Of a DNA stretch of 64,000 bases, positions 5,582 to 36,437 are shown one piece after another. Position numbers and translations under genes: made by a program. The notes beneath the pieces are model-generated. The model did no database searches. It worked only from the letters and a program-made list of their open reading frames with translations, and was not told the origin of the DNA. The stretch covers positions 14,601,501 through 14,665,500 of the forward strand of contig OX439041.1 of the NCBI GenBank assembly GCA_949317995.1, given 5' to 3'. The stretch comes from Acholoe squamosa (Eukaryota > Annelida > Polychaeta > Phyllodocida > Polynoidae). Each line of letters begins with the position of its first letter. The first letter of the stretch is position 1.

Positions 5582-5587
5582 GTTGTC
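5582..5587. repeat. Left target-site duplication GTTGTC
   Basis: GTTGTC directly precedes the first terminal ACT triplet of the element and recurs directly after the last AGT at 27765-27770. A 6 bp duplication is what Polinton/Maverick integrases usually leave. The next three bases (ACT) also match on both sides, so the boundary could be shifted by up to 3 bp. Confidence 0.8.
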
Positions 5588-5593
5588 ACTACT
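5588..5593. repeat. Terminal triplets (ACT)2
   Basis: The element starts ACTACT here, and the distal right end (27753-27764) reads AGT four times. Short tandem repeats at the tips are expected where protein-primed replication starts by sliding back on a repeated template, as in adenovirus and phi29-like phages. Variation in copy number between ends fits that mechanism. Confidence 0.6.
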
Positions 5594-5620
5594 AATGTTC
5601 TCCGATACCACCCCAACAAA

Positions 5621-5657
5621 TGACGTCAGTGACGTCATCATGACGTCAGTGACGTCA
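5621..5657. promoter_or_regulatory. Cluster of four TGACGTCA (CRE/ATF) sites
   Basis: Perfect TGACGTCA octamers lie at 5621-5628, 5630-5637, 5641-5648 and 5650-5657, 33 bp from the tip of the element. This is the consensus for CREB/ATF bZIP factors. Adenovirus early promoters near the genome ends also use ATF sites, so a role in host-factor-driven early transcription is a reasonable inference. Mirror copies lie at 18891-18927 and 27689-27725. Confidence 0.65.
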
Positions 5658-5694
5658 TGACACTGACATACCTTGGTGGGTGGTACAGATAAGG

Positions 5695-5884
5695 ACTGTT
5701 ATCATATCTGGTAGTGGAGATTAAGGGTATTACCAAGGATAACAAGGGGATTAGTACGCTAATCTGAGGTTAACAATGTTATGAACTGTTATCATATCTG
5801 GTAGTGGAGATTAGGTATAGATTAAGGGTATTACCCAGGATAACAATGGGATTAGTATGTTAACCTGAGATTAACAATGTTATG
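5695..5884. repeat. Two ~95 bp direct repeats in the terminal region
   Basis: Unit 1 is 5695-5783 and unit 2 is 5785-5884. Both start ACTGTTATCATATCTGGTAG and end TTAACAATGTTATG; unit 2 has an extra ~11 bp that duplicates part of itself. Each holds several GTTATC/GGATAAC (GATA-type) motifs. They may be enhancer, packaging or replication elements. Mirrored at 18664-18853 and 27462-27651. Confidence 0.8.
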
Positions 5885-5969
5885 TCTATGTAATATACTC
5901 TGTAAGGTGATATAGATAATTGCATAAAAGATTTAGCTACATCATACTCCAAAAAAGAAAAAAAAGAAG

Positions 5970-5988
5970 GGGGGCGGGGGTATAAATG
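5970..5988 (+). promoter_or_regulatory. GC box plus TATA box (distal promoter)
   Basis: GGGGGCGGGGG is followed directly by TATAAATG (TATA at 5981), about 95 bp upstream of the ATPase start codon. A purine tract (5951-5970) precedes it. This is an Sp1-plus-TATA layout typical of animal and viral Pol II promoters. Confidence 0.55.
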
Positions 5989-6028
5989 AAAAATAGACAA
6001 TGTAATTATATAAGATCACACAGTAGCT

Positions 6029-6036
6029 TATAAAAG
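6029..6036 (+). promoter_or_regulatory. TATA box TATAAAAG (proximal promoter)
   Basis: A consensus TATAAAAG lies 48 bp before the ATPase ATG. Transcription starting about 30 bp downstream would give a very short leader. With the distal TATA at 5981 it makes a tandem promoter. Since no other clear promoter separates the genes, it may drive the whole seven-gene array. Confidence 0.6.
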
Positions 6037-6076
6037 TAGTGAATTAGGTTGTTGAAATTTAGTTTATTACTCCAAC

Positions 6077-6811
6077 ATGTCAACGACAGGAGTATTGTCA
6101 GCTGTTGAATGGAGAGGTGATGCTGAAGGCCATGATTATATTCCATGGTGGGAAACTCAGAGCTTGCTTCCATTTAAGCCATGTAGTAGTATATGTGTAA
6201 GTGGTACTACAGGTAGTGGAAAAACCTTTTGGGTTTATAAACTGTTGAGAAATATCAAAGGTATGTTTGTTGAAGATCCACCACATACTATATTGTATTG
6301 TTATGGTGTGTATCAGGATACCTTTGACGAGATGGAAAGAGAGATTCCAAACATAACCTTTCACAAGGGACTACCTGATGCAGAACTGTTGGACGAGATA
6401 TCAGCAAATGGAAAACATAATTTGATTATTCTTGATGACCTGGCACGTAAAGTGGTAAAGAATGATGACATGGAAGAATTGTTTACTCAAGGATGCCACC
6501 ATAAAGACTTTTCAGTTATTTACATACTGCAGAACTTGTATCAGAAAGGTCCGAATGCAAGGACAATTGCACTGAATACATGGTACCAAGTTTTGTTTAG
6601 AAATCTTAGAGACGTTTCTCAAATTAGTACAATGGGTAGACAGATGTTTCCACGGAATGCAGAAGTACTAAGAGAGGCATATGAGGATGCCACAGGAAAA
6701 CCCTATGGTTATTTGGTCATAGATAATACACCTCATAGTAATGTGAAGTACAGGCTACGAACTAGGATATTTCCTAATGAGGACCCTATTGTGTATGTTC
6801 CAAAAGTATAA
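6077..6811 (+). CDS. FtsK/HerA-type genome-packaging ATPase (A32-like), left arm
   Basis: A 244-residue protein with Walker A GTTGSGKT (residues 43-50), Walker B LIILDD (116-121) and a polar sensor strand VIYILQN (147-153). A following block, ARTIALNTWYQVLFRNLRD (161-179), carries Arg and Asn residues typical of this family. This is the FtsK/HerA-superfamily ATPase of Polintons, adintoviruses and virophages, which pumps DNA into preformed capsids. The length fits the family (about 220-260). It is the first gene of the array, 40 bp after the proximal TATA box, and its ATG has A at -3. The frame is intact and all key residues are present. The Polinton-type assignment follows from the motifs and neighbours; activity is inferred. 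Confidence 0.93.
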   Translation: MSTTGVLSAVEWRGDAEGHDYIPWWETQSLLPFKPCSSICVSGTTGSGKTFWVYKLLRNIKGMFVEDPPHTILYCYGVYQDTFDEMEREIPNITFHKGLPDAELLDEISANGKHNLIILDDLARKVVKNDDMEELFTQGCHHKDFSVIYILQNLYQKGPNARTIALNTWYQVLFRNLRDVSQISTMGRQMFPRNAEVLREAYEDATGKPYGYLVIDNTPHSNVKYRLRTRIFPNEDPIVYVPKV

Positions 6812-6861
6812 ATACTGTATACAGGAGTATTTTACATTTCATTGATGAAGTAGGAGTCGCT

Positions 6862-7188
6862 ATGAGTAAACGTCTCAAGACCAACTCAGCACTGATTAGT
6901 TTTTTGTTGAGTAAGATACCTTACACGCAATTTCTTCAGGTGTTGAATACACTGAATGGCGAGCAAGTCAACACGATAAGTGAAATAGCAGCAAACGTTT
7001 TATATGGGAATATACCTGTGTCTGATCATTTCAAGAGGAAACTTAGTAGGTACAGATCCAAAATTGACTACATTGGTGACTCTAAAACAAGTTTAAAGAA
7101 AAGGAAAGACTTTATACTAAAGGAGGCAAAACTTGTTAAATTGATACTACAAGCAGCTGAAGCAATACTGAAAACTCTTTTACAATGA
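6862..7188 (+). CDS. Small helical basic protein conserved in Polinton-like elements, left arm
   Basis: 108 residues, mostly helical by composition. An Ile/Leu/Asn-rich centre (about 38-55) is followed by a strongly basic segment (58-90) and a hydrophobic amphipathic tail ending ILKTLLQ. I recognise the pattern as a small ORF that recurs beside capsid and integrase genes in invertebrate Polinton-like elements. I know of no established function. Basic charge plus an amphipathic end could suit a DNA- or membrane-associated virion protein, but that is inference. It starts 50 bp after the ATPase, and its stop overlaps the next start by 4 bp (ATGA at 7185-7188). Confidence 0.75.
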   Translation: MSKRLKTNSALISFLLSKIPYTQFLQVLNTLNGEQVNTISEIAANVLYGNIPVSDHFKRKLSRYRSKIDYIGDSKTSLKKRKDFILKEAKLVKLILQAAEAILKTLLQ

Positions 7189-7706
7189 GCACACAAAAGA
7201 TGGTTCTTGTTCCAGTAGACAAGTATGAGAGAATGAAACGTGCCAGTGGAGTAACAAAAACAACAACAACAACAGCAATATCAACAGCCCCTGCAGATAC
7301 ACTACCAGGACAGGTAAATGAGGTAATAGAAGATGAAGAGGAAACACACATGGGGCTAGACAAGGATAAAATTATTGACTCTCTACCAAAAATGTACAAG
7401 TCCAAAGGTCGAGCTTTATTAAACTACATAGAGAATGGTAACGTGTTGACCTGGAATGAAAAGGGAGAGATTTTGTATAATGGTAGAAGGATAGCAAATA
7501 GTCACATTGTAGACCTGCTGAAGGATGCTATGAGGGAATACAAAGGCTTCGATCCTATTGGACAAACAGAATTTTACCAAGGTTTATCAGAGTCTAACGT
7601 ACCTTTACTGCTTTTGGACAACAAAAAAAATAGGACAAAGGTGTTAGAAGGCAAGTCTCGTTCACCCGTTAAATCAAATTTAAAAAGGGAGTGGATACAC
7701 ATATAA
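7185..7706 (+). CDS. Conserved Polinton protein of unknown function (LPK...W motif), left arm
   Basis: 173 residues. A short N-terminal strand motif (VLVPVDKYERM, 7-17) is followed by a Thr-rich acidic linker (about 24-53). A folded part (60-145) contains SLPKMY, LLNYI, a conserved-looking LTWNEKGEI and IANSHIVDLL. The same motif order occurs in a protein often found next to the integrase in invertebrate Polinton-like elements; its role is unknown to me. The C terminus is basic. The start overlaps the upstream stop (ATGA), and 37 bp separate it from the integrase. Possible roles include virion component or integrase cofactor, both untested. Confidence 0.75.
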   Translation: MSTQKMVLVPVDKYERMKRASGVTKTTTTTAISTAPADTLPGQVNEVIEDEEETHMGLDKDKIIDSLPKMYKSKGRALLNYIENGNVLTWNEKGEILYNGRRIANSHIVDLLKDAMREYKGFDPIGQTEFYQGLSESNVPLLLLDNKKNRTKVLEGKSRSPVKSNLKREWIHI

Positions 7707-7743
7707 ATACAAAGAATGAGACTGTAGTCTTTACCAGACAGCA

Positions 7744-8826
7744 ATGGAGGACCAGTTGAGACAGAGGTATAACACACCATCAACTCCTGGAAGTTTTCAA
7801 GGACCCAGTAAAGTGTATCAGAGTGCCAAAGCAGATGGATTTAATGTAAAGAAACAAGAAGTAGACGAAGCCCTGCAAAAAGAACTATCATATACTTTAA
7901 ACAGATCTGTGGTTAGAAAATTTCCAAGGAATCGAGTTGTGGTCGAGGGCTTAGATTCGCAGTGGGACATGGATCTGGCAGATCTTGCTTTGTTGAACAA
8001 GGAAAATGATGGCTACAAGTATTTTCTTCTTATGATTGACATTTTTAGTCGCTATGTTTGGGTACGGCCTTTAAAAACCAAGAAGCCAGAAGAGGTGATT
8101 GCTGCAATGAAAGAAATATTTGAAGAGGGGCGTCAACCAAAGGTGATAAGAAGTGACAAGGGTGGCGAGTTTACCAGTAAGAAAACAAGAGACTTTTTGA
8201 AGAAAAATGGGGTTCACTTTTTCACGACTATGAGTGAAACCAAAGGGAACTATGCAGAACGAGCCATTAAAACTGTGAAATCGAAGCTATATCGATACGT
8301 AGTGGCAAACAACAGGTTGAGATACATCGATGTCCTACAAGATATAGTTAAGAGTTACAACAATACAACTCACAGCAGTCTTGGAATACCACCATCAGCT
8401 GTAAACAAAGATAATGAAAATGAGGTTAGATATGAACAATACTTGAGGCGTCCAAAGAAGAAACCTAAATTTCAGCCTTACAAGTTTAAAGTAGGTGACC
8501 AAGTACGTATATCCTCCACGAGAGAAAAGTTTGACAGAGAATATGACCAGAAATGGAGTGGAGAAGTGTTCATTGTCAACAGTAGGAGGAGGAGAGAGGA
8601 AATACCCATTTATACCCTGGAAGACTGGAATTCTGAACCTATAAAAGGTACATTCTACCAACAGGAGCTTCAGAAAGTGTCTGTTTCTGACGACGACCTG
8701 TTCAGAATAGAAAAATTCCTGAAAAGAAGAAGACGTAACAAGAAATCAGAAGTGTACGTGAAGTTTAAGCACTGGCCAAACAAGTTCAACAGGTGGATTC
8801 CCGAAGAAGAAACTGTGGACATATGA
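7744..8826 (+). CDS. Retroviral-type integrase with C-terminal chromodomain, left arm
   Basis: 360 residues. The rve catalytic core carries the DDE triad D77 (in WDMDLADL), D138 (RSDKGGEF) and E172 (NYAERA), with 33 residues between the last two. A basic SH3-like region (about 245-310, FKVGDQVRIS...WSGEVFIV) follows. A chromodomain closes the protein (about 319-357, RIEKFLKRRR...VKF.HW....N.W.PEE). No N-terminal HHCC zinc motif is seen. It resembles the C. elegans 'transposon-derived protein F54H12.3' family. It would join the element ends to host DNA with a short target duplication, in agreement with the 6 bp repeat flanking the element; the chromodomain could guide it to methylated-histone chromatin. 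Its stop overlaps the next start (ATGA, 8823-8826). Confidence 0.93.
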   Translation: MEDQLRQRYNTPSTPGSFQGPSKVYQSAKADGFNVKKQEVDEALQKELSYTLNRSVVRKFPRNRVVVEGLDSQWDMDLADLALLNKENDGYKYFLLMIDIFSRYVWVRPLKTKKPEEVIAAMKEIFEEGRQPKVIRSDKGGEFTSKKTRDFLKKNGVHFFTTMSETKGNYAERAIKTVKSKLYRYVVANNRLRYIDVLQDIVKSYNNTTHSSLGIPPSAVNKDNENEVRYEQYLRRPKKKPKFQPYKFKVGDQVRISSTREKFDREYDQKWSGEVFIVNSRRRREEIPIYTLEDWNSEPIKGTFYQQELQKVSVSDDDLFRIEKFLKRRRRNKKSEVYVKFKHWPNKFNRWIPEEETVDI

Positions 8827-9242
8827 ATGACATATACTTGTTTATATCGAGTACAGACTCGAGGGAATATCATCCTGAAAATACTGTAAATGATTTTACG
8901 GTGAGGTTACCTAAAACCATTTATTTACTGGGTGACACTTGGACATGTGCTTTAAGAGATATTAAATGTCAAAATCCAAATAACCGAGACATTTATGTAT
9001 TTTGCGACATCGTAGAAGACTCGTGTGTGCTTGATGGACAAAGGCCTATACTACAATACATTCCAGCGGATGAAAGTAGTCCAAAGGTAACCACGATACA
9101 AAGCTTTGATTCATCCATTTGTGTTAAGGTATCAAGACATCGATTGGATACTTTGCGAGTGTATATAAGAAATGAGGAAATGAAGGAGATACCATTAACT
9201 GGAGAACGGACGACCTGTACACTACACTTACAGAAAACATGA
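8823..9242 (+). CDS. Penton-like minor capsid protein (single jelly-roll), left arm
   Basis: 139 residues from the ATG at 8823, which overlaps the integrase stop by 4 bp. An in-frame ATG at 8793 would add ten residues but lies well inside the integrase, so I prefer 8823. The N-terminal block (LFISSTDSREYHPENTVNDF, 6-25, then RLP and a strand-rich WTCALRDI) and the end (VYIRNEEM...TLHLQK) match the pattern of short capsid-vertex proteins in Polintons and adintoviruses. It is short for the family. The assignment rests on motif recognition and on its position between integrase and major capsid genes. Confidence 0.75.
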   Translation: MNDIYLFISSTDSREYHPENTVNDFTVRLPKTIYLLGDTWTCALRDIKCQNPNNRDIYVFCDIVEDSCVLDGQRPILQYIPADESSPKVTTIQSFDSSICVKVSRHRLDTLRVYIRNEEMKEIPLTGERTTCTLHLQKT

Positions 9243-9640
9243 GTGAAAGTGACTGGGACAAACATTTTAAGGACATGCAAAATGGAAAGTTATACCCTGA
9301 TAAAAATGGGGTATGGCGCCTGTTGTCTAACACAAGTTCAGATCCAAAAAGAGTCAGGGTAAATATCATAAGTCCTACTCAACAGGCTGTTAACCGTGCA
9401 AGATCACGAGTTAGTTCAAAGAGAGGCACTAAACAGGAGAGATCAACTTCCAGTTATCAAGCACGTAAACCTATAAAAAGGTTATCACCAAAGAAATCTG
9501 CCCAGAACACAAAGGATAGTCGTCAAACTAAGAAGACTAGTACAAAGACACCAAAGACAACAGTGACCATTAGAAAGAAGAGAAAGTCTGCAGTTAACAC
9601 CACTACATCACTGAGAGGAAAGCGTAAGACTGCATTTTGA
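9239..9640 (+). CDS. Small basic DNA-core-like protein, left arm
   Basis: 133 residues. About 40 N-terminal residues could fold (SDWDKHFKDM...GVWRLL). The rest is a disordered tail very rich in Lys, Arg, Ser and Thr, with repeated SP/TP and KK/RK motifs, ending RGKRKTAF. This resembles adenovirus core proteins (VII, X/mu) or histone tails in composition, so DNA condensation inside the capsid is a reasonable guess. There is no homology that I can confirm. The start overlaps the penton-gene stop (ATGA, 9239-9242), and only 4 bp separate its stop from the major capsid ATG. Confidence 0.7.
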   Translation: MSESDWDKHFKDMQNGKLYPDKNGVWRLLSNTSSDPKRVRVNIISPTQQAVNRARSRVSSKRGTKQERSTSSYQARKPIKRLSPKKSAQNTKDSRQTKKTSTKTPKTTVTIRKKRKSAVNTTTSLRGKRKTAF

Positions 9641-9644
9641 GGAA

Positions 9645-10955
9645 ATGTCTGGCCATAATAATGGGCTTGCATTGTTTTACAAACCTATGGAAGAAAAGGG
9701 AGTGGAAAGTGTAGAATGGCTTGAACACCGACCTGTGGGCCAATTGACTACAGATGGACCGCTGGAATTTAACATTCCTGGAAACAGTACTAAGTATATT
9801 GACATGAGCAAGACTCGAATCAAAGTGAAATGCAAGATAACTCAGGCTGATGGAAGTGACATACCTGACTGGAGACCGGTGGGAGAAAAAGGGACAACAC
9901 CTGCAGCTGCAAAAGTTGGACCAACAAACTTAACTCTTCAGAGTTTATGGAGACAGGTTGACGTTAGTGTTCAGCAGCAAATTATTTCACCTGAAATAGC
10001 TTCTCGTTATATTTTTAAGGCATACATAGAGACCCTTTTGATGTATTGTGTTGGCGCTAAAAATACACAACTTCGAACTCAACTGTACATTAAGGACACT
10101 GGCAATGTAGATGACGCAGACCCTGTTGGGGGTACCAACAGTGGTCTAATTATGAGGTCCATGTTATTCGAAAAGAGTAAAATTGTAGAGTTAGAAGGCC
10201 CTGTTTATAATGATATCTGTCAACAAGATCGTTATATATTAAACTCTGTACATGTAAATTTTAAGTTTTGGCAAAATGATAATAGGTTTCGAATAATGAG
10301 TTCAAACCCAGGAGCAGATTACAAAATTAAAATTGTTGATGCCACTCTGAAAATTTGTATGATTGATGTTGCACCGAAAGCTCTCATGAAAATTGAAAAA
10401 ACATTACTTGATGGGCCAGCAGAATATTTCTATGACCGTACTGATGTAAAAGCTTATGGAATACCCGCCGGTCAGTTTGGTACAACTATAGATGATATGT
10501 ATCAGGGGGATATTCCCAATCGTCTTGTAGTAGGCCTTGTCTCCTCAAAGGGATATACTGGCGACTATGCTACAAACGGTCTAAGTTTTAAGCACTACAA
10601 TGCAAACTTTGTAAGTTTTTATGTAGATGGAAAATCTGTACCGGCAGAACCGTTGACTCCAAATTACAGTACTTCAAGCTACACCTCGGCTTACATGACG
10701 TTGTTTGCTGACAGATATATGGAAAATTATGGCAATGACATTAGTCTCAGTGAATATCCCAATGGATATTGTCTTTATGTGTTTGATGTGTGTCAAGGTC
10801 AATGTGAAAAGTATAGGAAAAAAAGATTAAAAGGTCATTCAAGGTTCGAGATTAAGTTTAAAGAAGCATTGCCTGAGGCTGTTACCATGATTGTTTATGC
10901 AATCTTTCCAGGACTTCTACATATAGACGAAGTCAGGAACATTAAGATACATTAA
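9645..10955 (+). CDS. Major capsid protein, double jelly-roll type (F54H12.2-like), left arm
   Basis: 436 residues. Landmarks are GPLEFNIPGN....YIDMSKT (38-57), the SLWRQVDV..QQ.ISPE.ASRYIFKAYIETLL block (100-132), PNRLVVGLV (291-299), FKHYNANFVSFYVDG (315-329) and YPNGYCLYVFD (371-381). These match the invertebrate family annotated as F54H12.2-like, which accompanies the integrase and ATPase in Polinton-like elements. I take it as the double-jelly-roll major capsid protein that would form trimeric capsomers. Length is typical or slightly short. It is the last gene of the array; a poly(A) signal follows 22 bp after the stop. Confidence 0.82.
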   Translation: MSGHNNGLALFYKPMEEKGVESVEWLEHRPVGQLTTDGPLEFNIPGNSTKYIDMSKTRIKVKCKITQADGSDIPDWRPVGEKGTTPAAAKVGPTNLTLQSLWRQVDVSVQQQIISPEIASRYIFKAYIETLLMYCVGAKNTQLRTQLYIKDTGNVDDADPVGGTNSGLIMRSMLFEKSKIVELEGPVYNDICQQDRYILNSVHVNFKFWQNDNRFRIMSSNPGADYKIKIVDATLKICMIDVAPKALMKIEKTLLDGPAEYFYDRTDVKAYGIPAGQFGTTIDDMYQGDIPNRLVVGLVSSKGYTGDYATNGLSFKHYNANFVSFYVDGKSVPAEPLTPNYSTSSYTSAYMTLFADRYMENYGNDISLSEYPNGYCLYVFDVCQGQCEKYRKKRLKGHSRFEIKFKEALPEAVTMIVYAIFPGLLHIDEVRNIKIH

Positions 10956-12266
10956 GTCACAATGTGTTAATTGTCATAATAAAATTATGGTTGTATATTG
11001 ATAATTTTACTGGTAAGGTCAAGGTTGAAACACAGGGTGGTCTGCCATTACTTTGGGTCATTATGACAAAGGTTCCCAATCTAATCACCTAACATCAAAA
11101 TGAACAAGGCATACAGACATGGTAAGACCACTTATTTTAGAGTTTTTTCAGCCAAATGTCTAAGTAAAAGGAGAAAAAGACCGTTCTGATTGACAAAATA
11201 TATATTTACTTTTTATTTCCTTGGATACATATAATCTGCCAACAATGTCTACTGGTAAGATGAAAATATGAATACAAAAATAATCTACAAAACTGTTTTC
11301 TTTGAATGAATAAAAATGGAGTATCAAAAACACATGTCTCTGTTTTCTATAACATTAGAGTAACATGGCATCATATAGTAATATACATGATATGAAATAT
11401 CTAACTATCTATGGCTATAAATACATAATTTACCCTACCTCTGGACTACAAAAAAAAAAGGCAAAGCAATGTACCGTTTTATTACATTACAGTAACTTGG
11501 CATCATAAGGTAACAAACAATATACCGTTTTATAACATTACAGTAATGTGGCATCAAACAGTAATATACATAATATAAAATATCTTGCTATCTATGGCTA
11601 CAAATATATGATTTACCATACGTCTTGACTACAAAAAGAGAAAATAGCTGCTTCCTGTAATACAAGTGAATCATTTACAAACAACTTTTTTTACCACTAT
11701 TCAATATATTATCTACCATGAAACAATAATCTTTACTTCCTAAAGTCAGAACAACTAAGACATAATCTCTAGTATTAAAATAACTGGGGGGCTAACCAGT
11801 CATAAAGATTTGTGTATCATATCATGGCTTCACAAAATATACTTCTGATGGAATGATCATGAAAAAAAAAAAGAGATCCATTTAGCAAAACAATATACTT
11901 CTAATGGAATAATCAAGCTGTCATAGCTGTTTGAGATTCAAGAGTCAAAAACACTGGTTAATCAGTATTCAACGGTCAAAGTGTCACACATCCTGGACTA
12001 ATCAGCACCAAAAAGTTTCTAATTAATACTGCCTCTGGAATGTCAGGAGTGTCATGAAACCTGCATCAAATCAGCACCAAAAAGTGTCTCACCACTACTA
12101 CCTCATACTGTTTGCAACTTTGACTTACTGAGTGAAACCTTAATAATACTGATCAGAACATTTTATCGATGTCACCTATTTGTCTTTTTGGAAGACAGAC
12201 AAATAACTGCTCAGCATCTGTTGGAATGTCAGGTTTTTCCTTTTTTGTTGGGGGTGGTGGTAAAGG
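10956..12266. other. Non-coding inner part of the left arm
   Basis: About 1.3 kb without a significant ORF. It holds degenerate direct repeats: 11351-11455 and 11534-11637 share 'cattacagtaa.atggcatca..tagtaatatac' and 'ctatctatggctac'. A partial copy lies between them at about 11480-11520. Smaller repeats are 'aatatacttctgatgg' (11837, 11893) and 'cagcaccaaaaag' (12004, 12075). There is no trace of polymerase or protease frames. A 29-codon basic ORF (11100-11189) is the only small candidate. Confidence 0.75.
10978..10983 (+). terminator. Poly(A) signal AATAAA after the capsid gene
   Basis: AATAAA lies 22 bp after the MCP stop codon, with a GT/T-rich stretch downstream ('ggttgtatattg'). No other clear signal was noticed between the genes, which supports one long transcript ending here. 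Mirror and repeat copies lie at 13565-13570, 19776-19781 and 22363-22368. Confidence 0.6.
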
Positions 12267-12281
12267 CCACAGAATCCGCCT
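12267..12281. other. 15 bp non-palindromic spacer at the centre of symmetry
   Basis: CCACAGAATCCGCCT is the only stretch not mirrored in the 13.4 kb palindrome. It is flanked by GGTGGTGGTAAAGG and CCTTTACCACCACC. It could be the loop of a former hairpin end or the site of a snap-back priming event. The same spacer occurs at 21065-21079. Confidence 0.9.
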
Positions 12282-13592
12282 CCTTTACCACCACCCCCAA
12301 CAAAAAAGGAAAAACCTGACATTCCAACAGATGCTGAGCAGTTATTTGTCTGTCTTCCAAAAAGACAAATAGGTGACATCGATAAAATGTTCTGATCAGT
12401 ATTATTAAGGTTTCACTCAGTAAGTCAAAGTTGCAAACAGTATGAGGTAGTAGTGGTGAGACACTTTTTGGTGCTGATTTGATGCAGGTTTCATGACACT
12501 CCTGACATTCCAGAGGCAGTATTAATTAGAAACTTTTTGGTGCTGATTAGTCCAGGATGTGTGACACTTTGACCGTTGAATACTGATTAACCAGTGTTTT
12601 TGACTCTTGAATCTCAAACAGCTATGACAGCTTGATTATTCCATTAGAAGTATATTGTTTTGCTAAATGGATCTCTTTTTTTTTTTCATGATCATTCCAT
12701 CAGAAGTATATTTTGTGAAGCCATGATATGATACACAAATCTTTATGACTGGTTAGCCCCCCAGTTATTTTAATACTAGAGATTATGTCTTAGTTGTTCT
12801 GACTTTAGGAAGTAAAGATTATTGTTTCATGGTAGATAATATATTGAATAGTGGTAAAAAAAGTTGTTTGTAAATGATTCACTTGTATTACAGGAAGCAG
12901 CTATTTTCTCTTTTTGTAGTCAAGACGTATGGTAAATCATATATTTGTAGCCATAGATAGCAAGATATTTTATATTATGTATATTACTGTTTGATGCCAC
13001 ATTACTGTAATGTTATAAAACGGTATATTGTTTGTTACCTTATGATGCCAAGTTACTGTAATGTAATAAAACGGTACATTGCTTTGCCTTTTTTTTTTGT
13101 AGTCCAGAGGTAGGGTAAATTATGTATTTATAGCCATAGATAGTTAGATATTTCATATCATGTATATTACTATATGATGCCATGTTACTCTAATGTTATA
13201 GAAAACAGAGACATGTGTTTTTGATACTCCATTTTTATTCATTCAAAGAAAACAGTTTTGTAGATTATTTTTGTATTCATATTTTCATCTTACCAGTAGA
13301 CATTGTTGGCAGATTATATGTATCCAAGGAAATAAAAAGTAAATATATATTTTGTCAATCAGAACGGTCTTTTTCTCCTTTTACTTAGACATTTGGCTGA
13401 AAAAACTCTAAAATAAGTGGTCTTACCATGTCTGTATGCCTTGTTCATTTTGATGTTAGGTGATTAGATTGGGAACCTTTGTCATAATGACCCAAAGTAA
13501 TGGCAGACCACCCTGTGTTTCAACCTTGACCTTACCAGTAAAATTATCAATATACAACCATAATTTTATTATGACAATTAACACATTGTGAC

Positions 13593-14903
13593 TTAATGTA
13601 TCTTAATGTTCCTGACTTCGTCTATATGTAGAAGTCCTGGAAAGATTGCATAAACAATCATGGTAACAGCCTCAGGCAATGCTTCTTTAAACTTAATCTC
13701 GAACCTTGAATGACCTTTTAATCTTTTTTTCCTATACTTTTCACATTGACCTTGACACACATCAAACACATAAAGACAATATCCATTGGGATATTCACTG
13801 AGACTAATGTCATTGCCATAATTTTCCATATATCTGTCAGCAAACAACGTCATGTAAGCCGAGGTGTAGCTTGAAGTACTGTAATTTGGAGTCAACGGTT
13901 CTGCCGGTACAGATTTTCCATCTACATAAAAACTTACAAAGTTTGCATTGTAGTGCTTAAAACTTAGACCGTTTGTAGCATAGTCGCCAGTATATCCCTT
14001 TGAGGAGACAAGGCCTACTACAAGACGATTGGGAATATCCCCCTGATACATATCATCTATAGTTGTACCAAACTGACCGGCGGGTATTCCATAAGCTTTT
14101 ACATCAGTACGGTCATAGAAATATTCTGCTGGCCCATCAAGTAATGTTTTTTCAATTTTCATGAGAGCTTTCGGTGCAACATCAATCATACAAATTTTCA
14201 GAGTGGCATCAACAATTTTAATTTTGTAATCTGCTCCTGGGTTTGAACTCATTATTCGAAACCTATTATCATTTTGCCAAAACTTAAAATTTACATGTAC
14301 AGAGTTTAATATATAACGATCTTGTTGACAGATATCATTATAAACAGGGCCTTCTAACTCTACAATTTTACTCTTTTCGAATAACATGGACCTCATAATT
14401 AGACCACTGTTGGTACCCCCAACAGGGTCTGCGTCATCTACATTGCCAGTGTCCTTAATGTACAGTTGAGTTCGAAGTTGTGTATTTTTAGCGCCAACAC
14501 AATACATCAAAAGGGTCTCTATGTATGCCTTAAAAATATAACGAGAAGCTATTTCAGGTGAAATAATTTGCTGCTGAACACTAACGTCAACCTGTCTCCA
14601 TAAACTCTGAAGAGTTAAGTTTGTTGGTCCAACTTTTGCAGCTGCAGGTGTTGTCCCTTTTTCTCCCACCGGTCTCCAGTCAGGTATGTCACTTCCATCA
14701 GCCTGAGTTATCTTGCATTTCACTTTGATTCGAGTCTTGCTCATGTCAATATACTTAGTACTGTTTCCAGGAATGTTAAATTCCAGCGGTCCATCTGTAG
14801 TCAATTGGCCCACAGGTCGGTGTTCAAGCCATTCTACACTTTCCACTCCCTTTTCTTCCATAGGTTTGTAAAACAATGCAAGCCCATTATTATGGCCAGA
14901 CAT
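13593..14903 (-). CDS. Major capsid protein, right arm copy
   Basis: Protein identical to the product of 9645-10955 (436 residues). Its 3' end faces that of the left-arm copy across the 2.6 kb central non-coding region, so the two transcription units converge. Exact identity means the arms were made recently or are kept identical. Confidence 0.82.
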   Translation of the reverse strand: MSGHNNGLALFYKPMEEKGVESVEWLEHRPVGQLTTDGPLEFNIPGNSTKYIDMSKTRIKVKCKITQADGSDIPDWRPVGEKGTTPAAAKVGPTNLTLQSLWRQVDVSVQQQIISPEIASRYIFKAYIETLLMYCVGAKNTQLRTQLYIKDTGNVDDADPVGGTNSGLIMRSMLFEKSKIVELEGPVYNDICQQDRYILNSVHVNFKFWQNDNRFRIMSSNPGADYKIKIVDATLKICMIDVAPKALMKIEKTLLDGPAEYFYDRTDVKAYGIPAGQFGTTIDDMYQGDIPNRLVVGLVSSKGYTGDYATNGLSFKHYNANFVSFYVDGKSVPAEPLTPNYSTSSYTSAYMTLFADRYMENYGNDISLSEYPNGYCLYVFDVCQGQCEKYRKKRLKGHSRFEIKFKEALPEAVTMIVYAIFPGLLHIDEVRNIKIH

Positions 14904-14907
14904 TTCC

Positions 14908-15309
14908 TCAAAATGCAGTCTTACGCTTTCCTCTCAGTGATGTAGTGGTGTTAACTGCAGACTTTCTCTTCTTTCTAATGGTCACTGTTGTCTTTGGTGT
15001 CTTTGTACTAGTCTTCTTAGTTTGACGACTATCCTTTGTGTTCTGGGCAGATTTCTTTGGTGATAACCTTTTTATAGGTTTACGTGCTTGATAACTGGAA
15101 GTTGATCTCTCCTGTTTAGTGCCTCTCTTTGAACTAACTCGTGATCTTGCACGGTTAACAGCCTGTTGAGTAGGACTTATGATATTTACCCTGACTCTTT
15201 TTGGATCTGAACTTGTGTTAGACAACAGGCGCCATACCCCATTTTTATCAGGGTATAACTTTCCATTTTGCATGTCCTTAAAATGTTTGTCCCAGTCACT
15301 TTCACTCAT
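14908..15309 (-). CDS. Basic core-like protein, right arm copy
   Basis: Identical to the 133-residue Lys/Arg-rich product of 9239-9640, with the same ATGA overlap (15306-15309) with the penton-like gene and the 4 bp gap to the capsid gene. Confidence 0.7.
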   Translation of the reverse strand: MSESDWDKHFKDMQNGKLYPDKNGVWRLLSNTSSDPKRVRVNIISPTQQAVNRARSRVSSKRGTKQERSTSSYQARKPIKRLSPKKSAQNTKDSRQTKKTSTKTPKTTVTIRKKRKSAVNTTTSLRGKRKTAF

Positions 15310-15725
15310 GTTTTCTGTAAGTGTAGTGTACAGGTCGTCCGTTCTCCAGTTAATGGTATCTCCTTCATTTCCTCATTTCTTATATACACTCGCAAAGTAT
15401 CCAATCGATGTCTTGATACCTTAACACAAATGGATGAATCAAAGCTTTGTATCGTGGTTACCTTTGGACTACTTTCATCCGCTGGAATGTATTGTAGTAT
15501 AGGCCTTTGTCCATCAAGCACACACGAGTCTTCTACGATGTCGCAAAATACATAAATGTCTCGGTTATTTGGATTTTGACATTTAATATCTCTTAAAGCA
15601 CATGTCCAAGTGTCACCCAGTAAATAAATGGTTTTAGGTAACCTCACCGTAAAATCATTTACAGTATTTTCAGGATGATATTCCCTCGAGTCTGTACTCG
15701 ATATAAACAAGTATATGTCATTCAT
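15306..15725 (-). CDS. Penton-like minor capsid protein, right arm copy
   Basis: Identical to 8823-9242. The start at 15725 overlaps the integrase stop, as in the left arm. A longer frame from 15755 would begin inside the integrase gene. Confidence 0.75.
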   Translation of the reverse strand: MNDIYLFISSTDSREYHPENTVNDFTVRLPKTIYLLGDTWTCALRDIKCQNPNNRDIYVFCDIVEDSCVLDGQRPILQYIPADESSPKVTTIQSFDSSICVKVSRHRLDTLRVYIRNEEMKEIPLTGERTTCTLHLQKT

Positions 15726-16804
15726 ATGTCCACAGTTTCTTCTTCGGGAATCCACCTGTTGAACTTGTTTGGCCAGTGCTTAAACTTCACGTACACTTCT
15801 GATTTCTTGTTACGTCTTCTTCTTTTCAGGAATTTTTCTATTCTGAACAGGTCGTCGTCAGAAACAGACACTTTCTGAAGCTCCTGTTGGTAGAATGTAC
15901 CTTTTATAGGTTCAGAATTCCAGTCTTCCAGGGTATAAATGGGTATTTCCTCTCTCCTCCTCCTACTGTTGACAATGAACACTTCTCCACTCCATTTCTG
16001 GTCATATTCTCTGTCAAACTTTTCTCTCGTGGAGGATATACGTACTTGGTCACCTACTTTAAACTTGTAAGGCTGAAATTTAGGTTTCTTCTTTGGACGC
16101 CTCAAGTATTGTTCATATCTAACCTCATTTTCATTATCTTTGTTTACAGCTGATGGTGGTATTCCAAGACTGCTGTGAGTTGTATTGTTGTAACTCTTAA
16201 CTATATCTTGTAGGACATCGATGTATCTCAACCTGTTGTTTGCCACTACGTATCGATATAGCTTCGATTTCACAGTTTTAATGGCTCGTTCTGCATAGTT
16301 CCCTTTGGTTTCACTCATAGTCGTGAAAAAGTGAACCCCATTTTTCTTCAAAAAGTCTCTTGTTTTCTTACTGGTAAACTCGCCACCCTTGTCACTTCTT
16401 ATCACCTTTGGTTGACGCCCCTCTTCAAATATTTCTTTCATTGCAGCAATCACCTCTTCTGGCTTCTTGGTTTTTAAAGGCCGTACCCAAACATAGCGAC
16501 TAAAAATGTCAATCATAAGAAGAAAATACTTGTAGCCATCATTTTCCTTGTTCAACAAAGCAAGATCTGCCAGATCCATGTCCCACTGCGAATCTAAGCC
16601 CTCGACCACAACTCGATTCCTTGGAAATTTTCTAACCACAGATCTGTTTAAAGTATATGATAGTTCTTTTTGCAGGGCTTCGTCTACTTCTTGTTTCTTT
16701 ACATTAAATCCATCTGCTTTGGCACTCTGATACACTTTACTGGGTCCTTGAAAACTTCCAGGAGTTGATGGTGTGTTATACCTCTGTCTCAACTGGTCCT
16801 CCAT
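15722..16804 (-). CDS. Integrase with chromodomain, right arm copy
   Basis: Identical to 7744-8826, including the D77/D138/E172 triad and the C-terminal chromodomain. The frame is intact. Confidence 0.93.
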   Translation of the reverse strand: MEDQLRQRYNTPSTPGSFQGPSKVYQSAKADGFNVKKQEVDEALQKELSYTLNRSVVRKFPRNRVVVEGLDSQWDMDLADLALLNKENDGYKYFLLMIDIFSRYVWVRPLKTKKPEEVIAAMKEIFEEGRQPKVIRSDKGGEFTSKKTRDFLKKNGVHFFTTMSETKGNYAERAIKTVKSKLYRYVVANNRLRYIDVLQDIVKSYNNTTHSSLGIPPSAVNKDNENEVRYEQYLRRPKKKPKFQPYKFKVGDQVRISSTREKFDREYDQKWSGEVFIVNSRRRREEIPIYTLEDWNSEPIKGTFYQQELQKVSVSDDDLFRIEKFLKRRRRNKKSEVYVKFKHWPNKFNRWIPEEETVDI

Positions 16805-16841
16805 TGCTGTCTGGTAAAGACTACAGTCTCATTCTTTGTAT

Positions 16842-17363
16842 TTATATGTGTATCCACTCCCTTTTTAAATTTGATTTAACGGGTGAACGAGACTTGCCTT
16901 CTAACACCTTTGTCCTATTTTTTTTGTTGTCCAAAAGCAGTAAAGGTACGTTAGACTCTGATAAACCTTGGTAAAATTCTGTTTGTCCAATAGGATCGAA
17001 GCCTTTGTATTCCCTCATAGCATCCTTCAGCAGGTCTACAATGTGACTATTTGCTATCCTTCTACCATTATACAAAATCTCTCCCTTTTCATTCCAGGTC
17101 AACACGTTACCATTCTCTATGTAGTTTAATAAAGCTCGACCTTTGGACTTGTACATTTTTGGTAGAGAGTCAATAATTTTATCCTTGTCTAGCCCCATGT
17201 GTGTTTCCTCTTCATCTTCTATTACCTCATTTACCTGTCCTGGTAGTGTATCTGCAGGGGCTGTTGATATTGCTGTTGTTGTTGTTGTTTTTGTTACTCC
17301 ACTGGCACGTTTCATTCTCTCATACTTGTCTACTGGAACAAGAACCATCTTTTGTGTGCTCAT
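16842..17363 (-). CDS. Conserved Polinton protein of unknown function, right arm copy
   Basis: Identical to the 173-residue product of 7185-7706, with the same 4 bp overlap with its upstream neighbour. Confidence 0.75.
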   Translation of the reverse strand: MSTQKMVLVPVDKYERMKRASGVTKTTTTTAISTAPADTLPGQVNEVIEDEEETHMGLDKDKIIDSLPKMYKSKGRALLNYIENGNVLTWNEKGEILYNGRRIANSHIVDLLKDAMREYKGFDPIGQTEFYQGLSESNVPLLLLDNKKNRTKVLEGKSRSPVKSNLKREWIHI

Positions 17364-17686
17364 TGTAAAAGAGTTTTCAGTATTGCTTCAGCTGCTTGTA
17401 GTATCAATTTAACAAGTTTTGCCTCCTTTAGTATAAAGTCTTTCCTTTTCTTTAAACTTGTTTTAGAGTCACCAATGTAGTCAATTTTGGATCTGTACCT
17501 ACTAAGTTTCCTCTTGAAATGATCAGACACAGGTATATTCCCATATAAAACGTTTGCTGCTATTTCACTTATCGTGTTGACTTGCTCGCCATTCAGTGTA
17601 TTCAACACCTGAAGAAATTGCGTGTAAGGTATCTTACTCAACAAAAAACTAATCAGTGCTGAGTTGGTCTTGAGACGTTTACTCAT
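17360..17686 (-). CDS. Small helical basic protein, right arm copy
   Basis: Identical to the 108-residue product of 6862-7188. Confidence 0.75.
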   Translation of the reverse strand: MSKRLKTNSALISFLLSKIPYTQFLQVLNTLNGEQVNTISEIAANVLYGNIPVSDHFKRKLSRYRSKIDYIGDSKTSLKKRKDFILKEAKLVKLILQAAEAILKTLLQ

Positions 17687-17736
17687 AGCGACTCCTACTT
17701 CATCAATGAAATGTAAAATACTCCTGTATACAGTAT

Positions 17737-18471
17737 TTATACTTTTGGAACATACACAATAGGGTCCTCATTAGGAAATATCCTAGTTCGTAGCCTGTAC
17801 TTCACATTACTATGAGGTGTATTATCTATGACCAAATAACCATAGGGTTTTCCTGTGGCATCCTCATATGCCTCTCTTAGTACTTCTGCATTCCGTGGAA
17901 ACATCTGTCTACCCATTGTACTAATTTGAGAAACGTCTCTAAGATTTCTAAACAAAACTTGGTACCATGTATTCAGTGCAATTGTCCTTGCATTCGGACC
18001 TTTCTGATACAAGTTCTGCAGTATGTAAATAACTGAAAAGTCTTTATGGTGGCATCCTTGAGTAAACAATTCTTCCATGTCATCATTCTTTACCACTTTA
18101 CGTGCCAGGTCATCAAGAATAATCAAATTATGTTTTCCATTTGCTGATATCTCGTCCAACAGTTCTGCATCAGGTAGTCCCTTGTGAAAGGTTATGTTTG
18201 GAATCTCTCTTTCCATCTCGTCAAAGGTATCCTGATACACACCATAACAATACAATATAGTATGTGGTGGATCTTCAACAAACATACCTTTGATATTTCT
18301 CAACAGTTTATAAACCCAAAAGGTTTTTCCACTACCTGTAGTACCACTTACACATATACTACTACATGGCTTAAATGGAAGCAAGCTCTGAGTTTCCCAC
18401 CATGGAATATAATCATGGCCTTCAGCATCACCTCTCCATTCAACAGCTGACAATACTCCTGTCGTTGACAT
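17737..18471 (-). CDS. Packaging ATPase, right arm copy
   Basis: Identical to 6077-6811 with intact Walker A and B motifs. Its promoter region (TATA boxes, GC box, repeats, CRE cluster) is mirrored at 18472-18930. Confidence 0.93.
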   Translation of the reverse strand: MSTTGVLSAVEWRGDAEGHDYIPWWETQSLLPFKPCSSICVSGTTGSGKTFWVYKLLRNIKGMFVEDPPHTILYCYGVYQDTFDEMEREIPNITFHKGLPDAELLDEISANGKHNLIILDDLARKVVKNDDMEELFTQGCHHKDFSVIYILQNLYQKGPNARTIALNTWYQVLFRNLRDVSQISTMGRQMFPRNAEVLREAYEDATGKPYGYLVIDNTPHSNVKYRLRTRIFPNEDPIVYVPKV

Positions 18472-18890
18472 GTTGGAGTAATAAACTAAATTTCAACAAC
18501 CTAATTCACTACTTTTATAAGCTACTGTGTGATCTTATATAATTACATTGTCTATTTTTCATTTATACCCCCGCCCCCCTTCTTTTTTTTCTTTTTTGGA
18601 GTATGATGTAGCTAAATCTTTTATGCAATTATCTATATCACCTTACAGAGTATATTACATAGACATAACATTGTTAATCTCAGGTTAACATACTAATCCC
18701 ATTGTTATCCTGGGTAATACCCTTAATCTATACCTAATCTCCACTACCAGATATGATAACAGTTCATAACATTGTTAACCTCAGATTAGCGTACTAATCC
18801 CCTTGTTATCCTTGGTAATACCCTTAATCTCCACTACCAGATATGATAACAGTCCTTATCTGTACCACCCACCAAGGTATGTCAGTGTCA

Positions 18891-18927
18891 TGACGTCACT
18901 GACGTCATGATGACGTCACTGACGTCA
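18891..18927. promoter_or_regulatory. CRE/ATF cluster, right arm
   Basis: Four TGACGTCA octamers, the mirror of 5621-5657. The octamer is its own reverse complement, so the sites read the same on both strands. Confidence 0.65.
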
Positions 18928-18960
18928 TTTGTTGGGGTGGTATCGGAGAACATTAGTAGT

Positions 18961-18976
18961 TCCGATTGCATATTGT
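18961..18976. other. 16 bp of unexplained sequence before the gap
   Basis: TCCGATTGCATATTGT follows the terminal AGTAGT. It matches neither the right host flank at 27765 (GTTGTCACTGC...), nor the complement of the left flank, nor element sequence. It may come from another insertion site, a true junction, or a contig-end error. Confidence 0.6.
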
Positions 18977-19176
18977 NNNNNNNNNNNNNNNNNNNNNNNN
19001 NNNNNNNNNNNNNNNNNNNNNNNNNNNNNNNNNNNNNNNNNNNNNNNNNNNNNNNNNNNNNNNNNNNNNNNNNNNNNNNNNNNNNNNNNNNNNNNNNNNN
19101 NNNNNNNNNNNNNNNNNNNNNNNNNNNNNNNNNNNNNNNNNNNNNNNNNNNNNNNNNNNNNNNNNNNNNNNNNNNN
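18977..19176. other. Assembly gap (200 N)
   Basis: Exactly 200 N, a common default for a gap of unknown size. Frames crossing it are artefacts. Confidence 0.97.
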
Positions 19177-19753
19177 AGCTCTCATGAAAATTGAAAAAAC
19201 ATTACTTGATGGGCCAGCAGAATATTTCTATGACCGTACTGATGTAAAAGCTTATGGAATACCCGCCGGTCAGTTTGGTACAACTATAGATGATATGTAT
19301 CAGGGGGATATTCCCAATCGTCTTGTAGTAGGCCTTGTCTCCTCAAAGGGATATACTGGCGACTATGCTACAAACGGTCTAAGTTTTAAGCACTACAATG
19401 CAAACTTTGTAAGTTTTTATGTAGATGGAAAATCTGTACCGGCAGAACCGTTGACTCCAAATTACAGTACTTCAAGCTACACCTCGGCTTACATGACGTT
19501 GTTTGCTGACAGATATATGGAAAATTATGGCAATGACATTAGTCTCAGTGAATATCCCAATGGATATTGTCTTTATGTGTTTGATGTGTGTCAAGGTCAA
19601 TGTGAAAAGTATAGGAAAAAAAGATTAAAAGGTCATTCAAGGTTCGAGATTAAGTTTAAAGAAGCATTGCCTGAGGCTGTTACCATGATTGTTTATGCAA
19701 TCTTTCCAGGACTTCTACATATAGACGAAGTCAGGAACATTAAGATACATTAA
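19177..19753 (+). pseudogene. Major capsid protein, 3' part cut by the gap
   Basis: Encodes residues 246-436 of the capsid protein, identical to the end of 9645-10955 (offset 8798). It is truncated by the assembly gap, not by a mutation. It is probably the same locus as 10379-10955 assembled twice. Confidence 0.85.
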
Positions 19754-23701: not shown

Positions 23702-23705
23702 TTCC

Positions 23706-24107
23706 TCAAAATGCAGTCTTACGCTTTCCTCTCAGTGATGTAGTGGTGTTAACTGCAGACTTTCTCTTCTTTCTAATGGTCACTGTTGTCTTTGGTGTCT
23801 TTGTACTAGTCTTCTTAGTTTGACGACTATCCTTTGTGTTCTGGGCAGATTTCTTTGGTGATAACCTTTTTATAGGTTTACGTGCTTGATAACTGGAAGT
23901 TGATCTCTCCTGTTTAGTGCCTCTCTTTGAACTAACTCGTGATCTTGCACGGTTAACAGCCTGTTGAGTAGGACTTATGATATTTACCCTGACTCTTTTT
24001 GGATCTGAACTTGTGTTAGACAACAGGCGCCATACCCCATTTTTATCAGGGTATAACTTTCCATTTTGCATGTCCTTAAAATGTTTGTCCCAGTCACTTT
24101 CACTCAT
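23706..24107 (-). CDS. Basic core-like protein, distal copy
   Basis: Identical to 14908-15309; the same caution about double assembly applies. Confidence 0.7.
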   Translation of the reverse strand: MSESDWDKHFKDMQNGKLYPDKNGVWRLLSNTSSDPKRVRVNIISPTQQAVNRARSRVSSKRGTKQERSTSSYQARKPIKRLSPKKSAQNTKDSRQTKKTSTKTPKTTVTIRKKRKSAVNTTTSLRGKRKTAF

Positions 24108-24523
24108 GTTTTCTGTAAGTGTAGTGTACAGGTCGTCCGTTCTCCAGTTAATGGTATCTCCTTCATTTCCTCATTTCTTATATACACTCGCAAAGTATCC
24201 AATCGATGTCTTGATACCTTAACACAAATGGATGAATCAAAGCTTTGTATCGTGGTTACCTTTGGACTACTTTCATCCGCTGGAATGTATTGTAGTATAG
24301 GCCTTTGTCCATCAAGCACACACGAGTCTTCTACGATGTCGCAAAATACATAAATGTCTCGGTTATTTGGATTTTGACATTTAATATCTCTTAAAGCACA
24401 TGTCCAAGTGTCACCCAGTAAATAAATGGTTTTAGGTAACCTCACCGTAAAATCATTTACAGTATTTTCAGGATGATATTCCCTCGAGTCTGTACTCGAT
24501 ATAAACAAGTATATGTCATTCAT
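24104..24523 (-). CDS. Penton-like minor capsid protein, distal copy
   Basis: Identical to 15306-15725, start chosen at the ATGA overlap with the integrase stop. Confidence 0.75.
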   Translation of the reverse strand: MNDIYLFISSTDSREYHPENTVNDFTVRLPKTIYLLGDTWTCALRDIKCQNPNNRDIYVFCDIVEDSCVLDGQRPILQYIPADESSPKVTTIQSFDSSICVKVSRHRLDTLRVYIRNEEMKEIPLTGERTTCTLHLQKT

Positions 24524-25602: not shown

Positions 25603-25639
25603 TGCTGTCTGGTAAAGACTACAGTCTCATTCTTTGTAT

Positions 25640-26484: not shown

Positions 26485-26534
26485 AGCGACTCCTACTTCA
26501 TCAATGAAATGTAAAATACTCCTGTATACAGTAT

Positions 26535-27688: not shown

Positions 27689-27725
27689 TGACGTCACTGA
27701 CGTCATGATGACGTCACTGACGTCA
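27689..27725. promoter_or_regulatory. CRE/ATF cluster, distal end
   Basis: Four TGACGTCA octamers near the right tip of the element, identical in arrangement to 18891-18927. Confidence 0.65.
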
Positions 27726-27752
27726 TTTGTTGGGGTGGTATCGGAGAACATT

Positions 27753-36369: not shown

Positions 36370-36423
<54 letters not shown>

Positions 36424-36437
36424 TATGATATATATAT

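What the first reader, a model, noticed from the sequence alone, without database searches (positions are those of the whole stretch)
5588..18960. A virus-like transposon built as a near-perfect 13.4 kb palindrome
Two 6679 bp arms, each with a complete seven-gene capsid/packaging/integration set, mirror each other around a 15 bp spacer. Ordinary Polintons are 15-20 kb, asymmetric and have short terminal inverted repeats. A symmetric genome resembles the palindromic (symmetric) defective genomes known from adenovirus, where one end is duplicated by snap-back of the displaced strand. Here the 'TIR' is the whole half-genome. If real, this is either a recurring architecture or a captured defective viral genome.
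Basis: partly seen in the sequence, partly recalled or inferred. Interest (0 to 1): 0.9.

Follow-up and report, generated by a model that had tools for sequence, protein, structure and literature searches.

The report
Mirror-image Polintons captured in a genome
A virus-like transposon in an animal-like genome is built as two mirror-image halves, the same odd design turns up at a dozen other sites in that genome, and it looks like defective "folded-back" viral DNA that then jumped into the chromosomes.

Summary
The palindrome is real: window 5588-18960 equals its own reverse complement except for 9 mismatches, all inside the central 15 bp. It is a Polinton/Maverick: A32-type ATPase, rve integrase, predicted double-jelly-roll capsid protein, (ACT)n ends, 6-bp target duplication. 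The window most simply holds one insertion: contigs on either side of a 200-N gap overlap by 8582 identical bases, and GTTGTC flanks both outer ends.

It is not unique. I compared sequence at 13 mirror-image copies in the same genome, though not the whole of each; no fetched stretch of the other 12 holds an N. Seven, the window included, carry a 6-bp target duplication at both outer ends, so the mirror existed before integration. Of 47 related integrase clusters, 14 are mirror-type; none has a listed polymerase nearby, against 27 of 33 single clusters. Two axes are each shared by three copies at different places.

Asymmetric relatives carry a convergent polymerase half in place of the second arm; two axes sit on 5- and 7-bp inverted repeats found in unfolded copies. 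Best reading: adenovirus-like symmetric genomes made by fold-back during linear-DNA replication, helped in trans, then integrated. End-joining is not excluded. No raw reads were available.

The parts
5582..5587 (.). left target-site duplication GTTGTC
   Evidence: same six letters at 27765-27770
5588..12266 (+). left arm of the palindrome (6,679 bp), beginning ACTACTAATG
12267..12281 (.). central 15-bp spacer (axis); AAAGG and CCTTT flank it
   Evidence: in the C16 copy the same place reads AAAGG-15 nt-CCTTT without folding back
12282..18960 (-). right arm, exact reverse complement of the left arm
18961..18976 (.). 16-bp tail at the end of contig 1, different from the right flank (unexplained)
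18977..19176 (.). 200-N gap
19177..27758 (.). start of contig 2: same letters as 10379-18960; most simply the unmerged overlap of the same insertion
27759..27764 (.). two extra AGT units at the right end (terminal repeat number varies between copies)
27765..27770 (.). right target-site duplication GTTGTC
6077..6811 (+). A32-type packaging ATPase, 244 aa (mirror 17737-18471 -)
   Evidence: Pox_A32 23.1 bits, cut-off 22.8
6862..7188 (+). 108-aa ORF, unknown (mirror 17360-17686 -)
7185..7706 (+). 173-aa ORF, unknown (mirror 16842-17363 -)
7744..8826 (+). integrase, rve core, chromo-like C-terminus below cut-off, 360 aa (mirror 15722-16804 -)
   Evidence: rve 58.2 bits; Chromo 22.1 bits, cut-off 25.1
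8793..9242 (+). 149-aa ORF (139 aa from ATG at 8823); weak single-jelly-roll/penton candidate (mirror 15306-15755 -)
   Evidence: pLDDT 73.6, best hit a PBCV-1 capsid chain, E 1.1e-3, no hit at E <= 0.001
9239..9640 (+). 133-aa Lys/Arg-rich ORF (mirror 14908-15309 -)
9645..10955 (+). major capsid protein, 436 aa, predicted double jelly roll (mirror 13593-14903 -)
10956..12266 (+). inner, mostly non-coding part of the arm; its last part reads as the 3' end of an LRR-transmembrane-protein gene that in the asymmetric relative at C2:103.3M lies beyond the polymerase

Best explanation
These are symmetric ('fold-back') Polinton genomes. Shown: elements with two copies of the capsid/integrase end mirrored about an axis, Polinton ends and 6-bp TSDs on both outer sides in the seven copies resolved, asymmetric relatives with a convergent polymerase half, and axes shared between copies at different sites. 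Inferred: while a linear Polinton is copied by its protein-primed polymerase, a single strand folds back at a short inverted repeat, primes on itself and copies the end it already holds, replacing the polymerase half by a second capsid/integrase half. Both ends are then good origins, so the molecule can be copied with polymerase supplied in trans by full elements, and integrase inserts it. Some mirror molecules were copied and inserted repeatedly, often with a one-sided deletion near the axis.
For: TSDs outside both mirror ends in 7 of 7 copies whose two outer ends I resolved: window GTTGTC, C10 ACATTG, C16 GTGAGG, C12:7.76 AGTGGT, C17 CATATG, C12:64.40 TGCAAG, C4:68.81 CCTCCT; window and C12:7.76 need a different number of terminal repeat units at the two ends. 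In the other 6 of 13 both ends were not resolved: C9 fetched without a clear end, C4:61.85 right end not reached, C35 cut by its contig start, C3, C2:2.79 and C15 not fetched. None of the 89 fetched loci holds an N; arms differ by 0 to 1.9% in the compared pieces. Mirror clusters: 5 of 6 at >=98%, 0 of 11 at 62-93%, 8 of 30 at 53-60%, 0 of 48 at <=46% integrase identity; every two-gene cluster faces inward. Listed polymerase within 9 kb: 0 of 14 mirror-type, 27 of 33 single clusters. Axes on short inverted repeats: C17 TGGATTA-35 nt-TAATCCA in the unfolded sibling; window AAAGG-15 nt-CCTTT in C16; CAG-CCT-CTG in C18 for the C35 axis, which itself reads CCC. Shared axes: window and C12:7.76 (same word), C10 the same minus 43 bp on one side; C3, C2:2.79 and C12:64.40 (same 33-letter word). 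Termini carry trinucleotide repeats of the kind linked to jumping-back priming (PMC8097293, passages).
Against: The C4:68.81 junction has no microhomology and the C3 axis only an imperfect 3-bp repeat. A deletion across the centre of a larger palindrome could make the window axis and most other short ones, so independent origins cannot be counted safely. C10's right arm shares three substitutions with C16 that its left arm lacks, so recombination or a mixed origin is involved. Free linear or protein-capped DNA was not observed. 'No listed polymerase' is weak: the PolB search scored only 33 of 1573 candidates, mirror copies outside the query family keep PolB pieces (C17, C12:64.40, C9, C4:61.85; C3 and C15 by alignment to a PolB-bearing sibling), and the piece in C9 covers about 1,000 residues.
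Confidence: 0.6

Rival explanations
1. Head-to-head joining: two broken linear Polinton molecules with the same end were ligated outside the chromosome, then replicated and integrated. The product is the same; no self-priming is needed.
For: C4:68.81 junction without microhomology; 3-bp microhomology at the first C17 junction (read by eye); the two arms of C10 carry different variants.
Against: Axes on 7-, 5- and 3-bp inverted repeats with short loops fit intramolecular folding better.
Confidence: 0.22
2. Assembly artefact: missed sequencing adapters or scaffolding of repeats made false palindromes.
For: The window copy abuts a 200-N gap with an 8.6-kb duplicated overlap and an unexplained 16-bp tail; its arms are suspiciously identical; the C35 copy starts at a contig end. 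Not every base of the other copies was fetched, and no reads were seen.
Against: No N in any of the 89 fetched loci; arms of the other copies differ by up to 1.9% in the compared pieces; seven have matching TSDs outside both ends; axes are shared across places; the 48 clusters of distant families in the same assembly show none.
Confidence: 0.05
3. Chromosomal event: an ordinary element was turned into an inverted duplication after insertion, or two elements inserted head to head.
For: Inverted duplications by fold-back are known in chromosomes (search listings only).
Against: One TSD pair brackets the whole mirror in 7 copies; the same axis recurs at different sites with different TSDs.
Confidence: 0.05
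4. Long terminal repeats by design: these lineages are normal Polintons whose terminal repeats grew to include the capsid block, with the single-copy centre lost.
For: C12:64.40, C15, C4:61.85 and C9 have single-copy centres of about 1-2.2 kb.
Against: The window, C3 and C17 are mirrored to within 15, 15 and 35 nt of the axis; C12:64.40 shares the C3 axis and reads as a one-sided deletion.
Confidence: 0.08

Closest known systems
Polintons/Mavericks (and adintovirus-like animal viruses)
   Same: A32 ATPase, rve integrase, double-jelly-roll MCP, 6-bp TSD, trinucleotide ends; asymmetric relatives here have two modules facing the centre, as reported for vertebrate Mavericks (PMC8097293, passages read).
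   Different: Intact vertebrate elements have TIRs of 46-1,447 bp (mean 402; same passages); here the 'TIR' is the whole 6.7-kb half, with no polymerase.
Symmetric (snap-back) defective genomes of adenovirus (recalled; in two paper searches, no listed title or abstract start named them)
   Same: One end duplicated in inverted orientation with origins at both ends; helper-dependent.
   Different: Here integrated in a host genome by an integrase, many copies, some mirror molecules copied repeatedly.
AAV 5' snapback defective genomes (PMC8235507, search listing and abstract start only)
   Same: Defective viral DNA in snapback configuration.
   Different: Different virus, different replication (recalled: rolling hairpin), not a transposon.
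Chromosomal palindromes and inverted duplications from template switching at short inverted repeats (ODIRA and similar; PMC4689423, PMC10766183, search listings only)
   Same: Template switching makes inverted duplications.
   Different: Here the mirror is bounded by transposon ends and a TSD.

Membership tests
Polinton/Maverick | retroviral-type (rve) integrase | tested here: met
   PF00665, 58.2 bits
Polinton/Maverick | A32/FtsK-type packaging ATPase | tested here: met
   PF04665, 23.1 bits, just above cut-off 22.8
Polinton/Maverick | double-jelly-roll major capsid protein | tested here: met
   pLDDT 90.7; Foldseek to PBCV-1, SGIV, mavirus MCPs
Polinton/Maverick | minor (single-jelly-roll) capsid protein | tested here: inconclusive
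   139-aa candidate, best E 1.1e-3
Polinton/Maverick | protein-primed PolB | tested here: not met
   No PolB match in the C10 left half, which is 99.9% identical to the window arm, and none of the seven window ORFs is PolB; present in asymmetric relatives. So I file it as a defective derivative, not as an autonomous member
Polinton/Maverick | adenovirus-type protease | tested here: inconclusive
   no Pfam or PHROGs protease hit among the seven ORFs; four ORFs remain without a firm assignment
Polinton/Maverick | 6-bp target-site duplication | tested here: met
   GTTGTC, after two extra AGT units on the right
Polinton/Maverick | repeat end motif | tested here: met
   (ACT)2//(AGT)2 here, (AGT)2//(ACT)2 in C17, C12:64.40, C4:68.81; compare PMC8097293, which reports the latter form
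Symmetric protein-primed defective genome | inverted duplication of one genome end with short non-duplicated centre | tested here: met
Symmetric protein-primed defective genome | axis at a short inverted repeat of the parent | tested here: inconclusive
   met for window (5 bp), C17 (7 bp), C35 (3 bp, read by eye); imperfect 3 bp for C3; none for C4:68.81; not determined for the rest
Symmetric protein-primed defective genome | free linear DNA with terminal protein, helper dependence | not testable with these tools
   needs DNA from tissue and experiments

The most novel reading that the evidence does not exclude
A standing population of mirror-image Polinton satellites: symmetric genomes that arise again and again from linear Polintons, perhaps from either end, are then copied as mirror molecules with polymerase borrowed from full elements, compete with them like defective interfering genomes, and are archived in the host's chromosomes as a record of protein-primed replication.
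Probability: 0.4. Interest if true: 0.9.

Novelty: new variant of a known kind. Interest (0 to 1): 0.78.

Why it matters
Polintons are called self-synthesising because of their polymerase, yet their replication has, to my knowledge, been inferred from genes rather than seen (recalled). Mirror genomes bounded by TSDs indicate that linear, replicated Polinton DNA exists outside the chromosome and makes fold-back errors like an adenovirus (inference). The arms start identical, so each copy carries its own clock, and the axes are natural records of where strands folded. It also shows a route to helper-dependent Polinton satellites.

Tried and rejected
Single misassembly: rejected for the architecture, kept open for details of the window copy (see rivals). 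'One and a half elements in tandem': set aside because one TSD pair brackets both contigs. Opposite-end palindromes: the LRR-gene search gave mirrored pairs at C12:39.09M, C14:64.60M and C1:122.14M. C12:39.09M ends without Polinton ends or TSD on its shorter side, C1:122.14M was not followed to its ends and C14:64.60M's outer ends were not fetched, so I count none of them as opposite-end Polintons. Nested double fold-back in C12:64.40: first thought so, replaced by a one-sided deletion once C3 showed the whole axis. IMG/VR scan with the MCP alignment: none of 19 pattern matches was a relative. Rfam on the window at gathering scores: only two tRNAs. Copy C10:6.33M (+ - - integrases) was not examined in sequence; it is the 14th mirror-type cluster. 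Seven paper searches showed no title or abstract start about palindromic Polintons among the papers listed (listings were cut to 6-20 papers each); most subscription papers are not held. I saw passages of PMC8097293 and PMC12721341; all other papers only as listings.

The genome-wide terminal-repeat search (window 5588-6076) did not complete, so copies without integrase or MCP were not sought.
Full report
Observation. Window 5588-18960 is its own reverse complement over 13,373 bp without gaps; the 9 mismatches all lie in the central 15 bp. Chance is not a consideration at this length. Each 6,679-bp arm has seven ORFs: an A32-type ATPase, an rve integrase and five others. The 436-aa ORF is the major capsid protein: a confident model (pLDDT 90.7) matches double-jelly-roll capsid proteins of PBCV-1, SGIV, Sputnik and mavirus, and with a weaker score adenovirus hexon. 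Among its 80 relatives the few with names include two oyster 'F54H12.2-like' proteins and Pinctada hypothetical proteins. No polymerase is among the ORFs and no protease was recognised.

The window copy. A 200-N gap at 18977-19176 splits the locus. The second contig begins with 8,582 bases identical to 10379-18960. GTTGTC precedes the left end and follows the right end of the second contig after two extra AGT units. The simplest reading is one 13.4-kb insertion whose contigs overlap. The last 16 bases of contig 1 are unexplained; the exact 28-mer of element end plus tail occurs nowhere else. Exact identity of the window's arms should be read with care because of this gap.

Recurrence. The integrase finds 113 matches in the 1.48-Gb genome (113 of 7953 first-look candidates were scored, so a lower bound). 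I grouped them into 110 genes and 95 clusters. Inward-facing pairs occur in 5 of 6 clusters at 98% identity or more, 0 of 11 at 62-93%, 8 of 30 at 53-60% and 0 of 48 at 46% or less. Eleven of the 13 have two integrases, all facing inward; two (the window and C10:6.33M) have a third. The MCP search (96 matches scored of 2319 candidates) added C2:2.79M. I read sequence at 13 mirror copies: the window, C10:10.80, C12:7.76, C16:13.43, C35, C17:9.61, C12:64.40, C4:68.81, C4:61.85, C9:69.01, C15:17.22, C3:18.85 and C2:2.79. For several (C12:64.40, C9, C4:61.85, C15, C3, C2:2.79) only parts were fetched. None of the 89 fetched loci holds an N. In the compared pieces the arms are 100% (window), 99.76% (C10), 99.94% (C17 main piece), 99.67% (C3, between the two MCPs) and as low as 98.4% (C4:61.85) and 98.1% (an outer piece of C9) identical.

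Bounded by TSDs. In 7 of the 13 both outer ends were resolved and all 7 carry the same six bases outside both ends: ACATTG, GTGAGG, AGTGGT, CATATG, TGCAAG, CCTCCT and the window's GTTGTC. Two of these (window and C12:7.76) need the number of terminal ACT/AGT units to differ between ends. CATATG is its own reverse complement, so it is weaker evidence alone. For C9 I fetched the outer parts and saw no clear end; the right end of C4:61.85 was not reached. C35 is cut by its contig start. The ends of C3, C2:2.79 and C15 were not fetched. A TSD outside a mirror means the integrase inserted a molecule that was already mirrored.

Asymmetric parents. At C2:103.33M, C6:69.18M and C13:0.86M the capsid/integrase block is followed, head-on, by a long PolB frame about 160-170 bp after the MCP. 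The arm DNA of the first two is 87-89% identical to the window arm, of the third 75%. In one search, 27 of 33 single clusters but 0 of 14 mirror-type clusters (13 examined plus C10:6.33M) have a listed PolB within 9 kb. Six single clusters have none listed, and the PolB search scored 33 of 1573 candidates, so an unlisted PolB is possible. Pieces of PolB persist in mirrors of the other lineages (C17, C12:64.40, C9 and C4:61.85; C3 and C15 by alignment to the sibling at C6:78.40M); in C9 the piece covers about 1,000 residues. In the query family none was seen in the C10, C16 and C35 stretches tested.

Where the mirrors fold. The C17 axis falls exactly on TGGATTA-35 nt-TAATCCA in its unfolded sibling at C6:78.40M. 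The window axis falls on AAAGG-15 nt-CCTTT, which the C16 copy carries unfolded because its own axis lies about 950 bp deeper; in the more distant C18:52.70M this repeat is not intact. The C35 axis falls on CAG-CCT-CTG of C18:52.70M (C35 itself reads CCC, my reading of the printed letters). The C3 axis shows only an imperfect 3-bp repeat and the C4:68.81 junction none. The deeper C16/C35 arms end inside a gene for an LRR-transmembrane protein, which in the relative at C2:103.3M lies beyond PolB. The window arm thus looks like the capsid block with PolB deleted, running into the 3' end of that gene (inference; about 1 kb of inner arm has no match in that relative).

Mirrors spread as mirrors. 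C10's centre is the window's centre minus 43 bp on one side, and C12:7.76 has the window's axis word with a 2.0-kb one-sided deletion. C3, C2:2.79 and C12:64.40 share another axis, the same 33-letter word with a 15-nt loop, the latter two with one-sided deletions. Private variants are often in both arms of one copy (a 13-bp deletion and one substitution in C12:7.76; four substitutions in C35), but C10's right arm shares three substitutions with C16 that its left arm lacks. So arms are partly homogenised and partly not.

Mechanism. Shown: mirrored elements, Polinton ends, TSDs, shared axes, polymerase-bearing relatives. Inferred: fold-back priming during protein-primed, strand-displacing replication; polymerase supplied in trans; integration by integrase. 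The terminal trinucleotide repeats, variable in number here (2 to 4 units), are the kind of end motif that Barreat and Katzourakis link to jumping-back priming (PMC8097293, passages seen; author names recalled). Joining of two broken molecules gives the same product and stays open. Because a deletion across the centre can turn a long mirror into a shorter one, I claim at least three origins (three diverged lineages: the query family; C17 and its kin; C9 with C4:61.85) and up to eight axes.

Novelty. TIRs of intact vertebrate Mavericks are reported as 46-1,447 bp (PMC8097293). The seven paper searches named in Tried and rejected listed no paper whose title or abstract start speaks of palindromic Polintons. 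Host identity is not given; an animal, perhaps a mollusc, is a guess from the oyster-named relatives.

Noticed in passing
window 46824-47049 and 47293-47518: Two copies of a 226-bp direct repeat (96% identical), each holding a tRNA-family match (46950-47021, 47419-47490).
   Followed up: no
window 36369-36504: A 136-bp stretch that is its own reverse complement at 95%, perhaps a small foldback element.
   Followed up: no
window 11345-11454 and 11528-11637 (mirrored in the other arm): Two 110-bp direct repeats, 85% identical, in the non-coding inner arm; most of this inner region had no match in the three PolB-bearing relatives compared.
   Followed up: partly
L045 (C16), L051 (C35), L072 (C2:103.3M): Elements of this family carry an LRR-transmembrane-protein gene beyond PolB, resembling a captured host receptor (my reading of the translation; no family search was run); the deeper mirror axes cut through it.
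   Followed up: partly
L073 (C12:39.09M), L074 (C14:64.60M), L075 with L081/L082 (C1:122.14M): Long palindromes of that LRR gene region; two share one axis, the third also holds a second gene next to the axis. Possible mirrors of the opposite element end, but Polinton ends were not found.
   Followed up: partly
G000 C14:45875847-45879209 (+) and C14:45895651-45898563 (-): Two inward-facing PolB matches with stops, 16 kb apart, without a listed integrase nearby; could be an opposite-end mirror or two insertions.
   Followed up: no
window 18961-18976: 16-bp tail after the palindrome at the end of contig 1; it differs from the right flank, and the exact 28-mer of element end plus tail is found only here.
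   Followed up: partly
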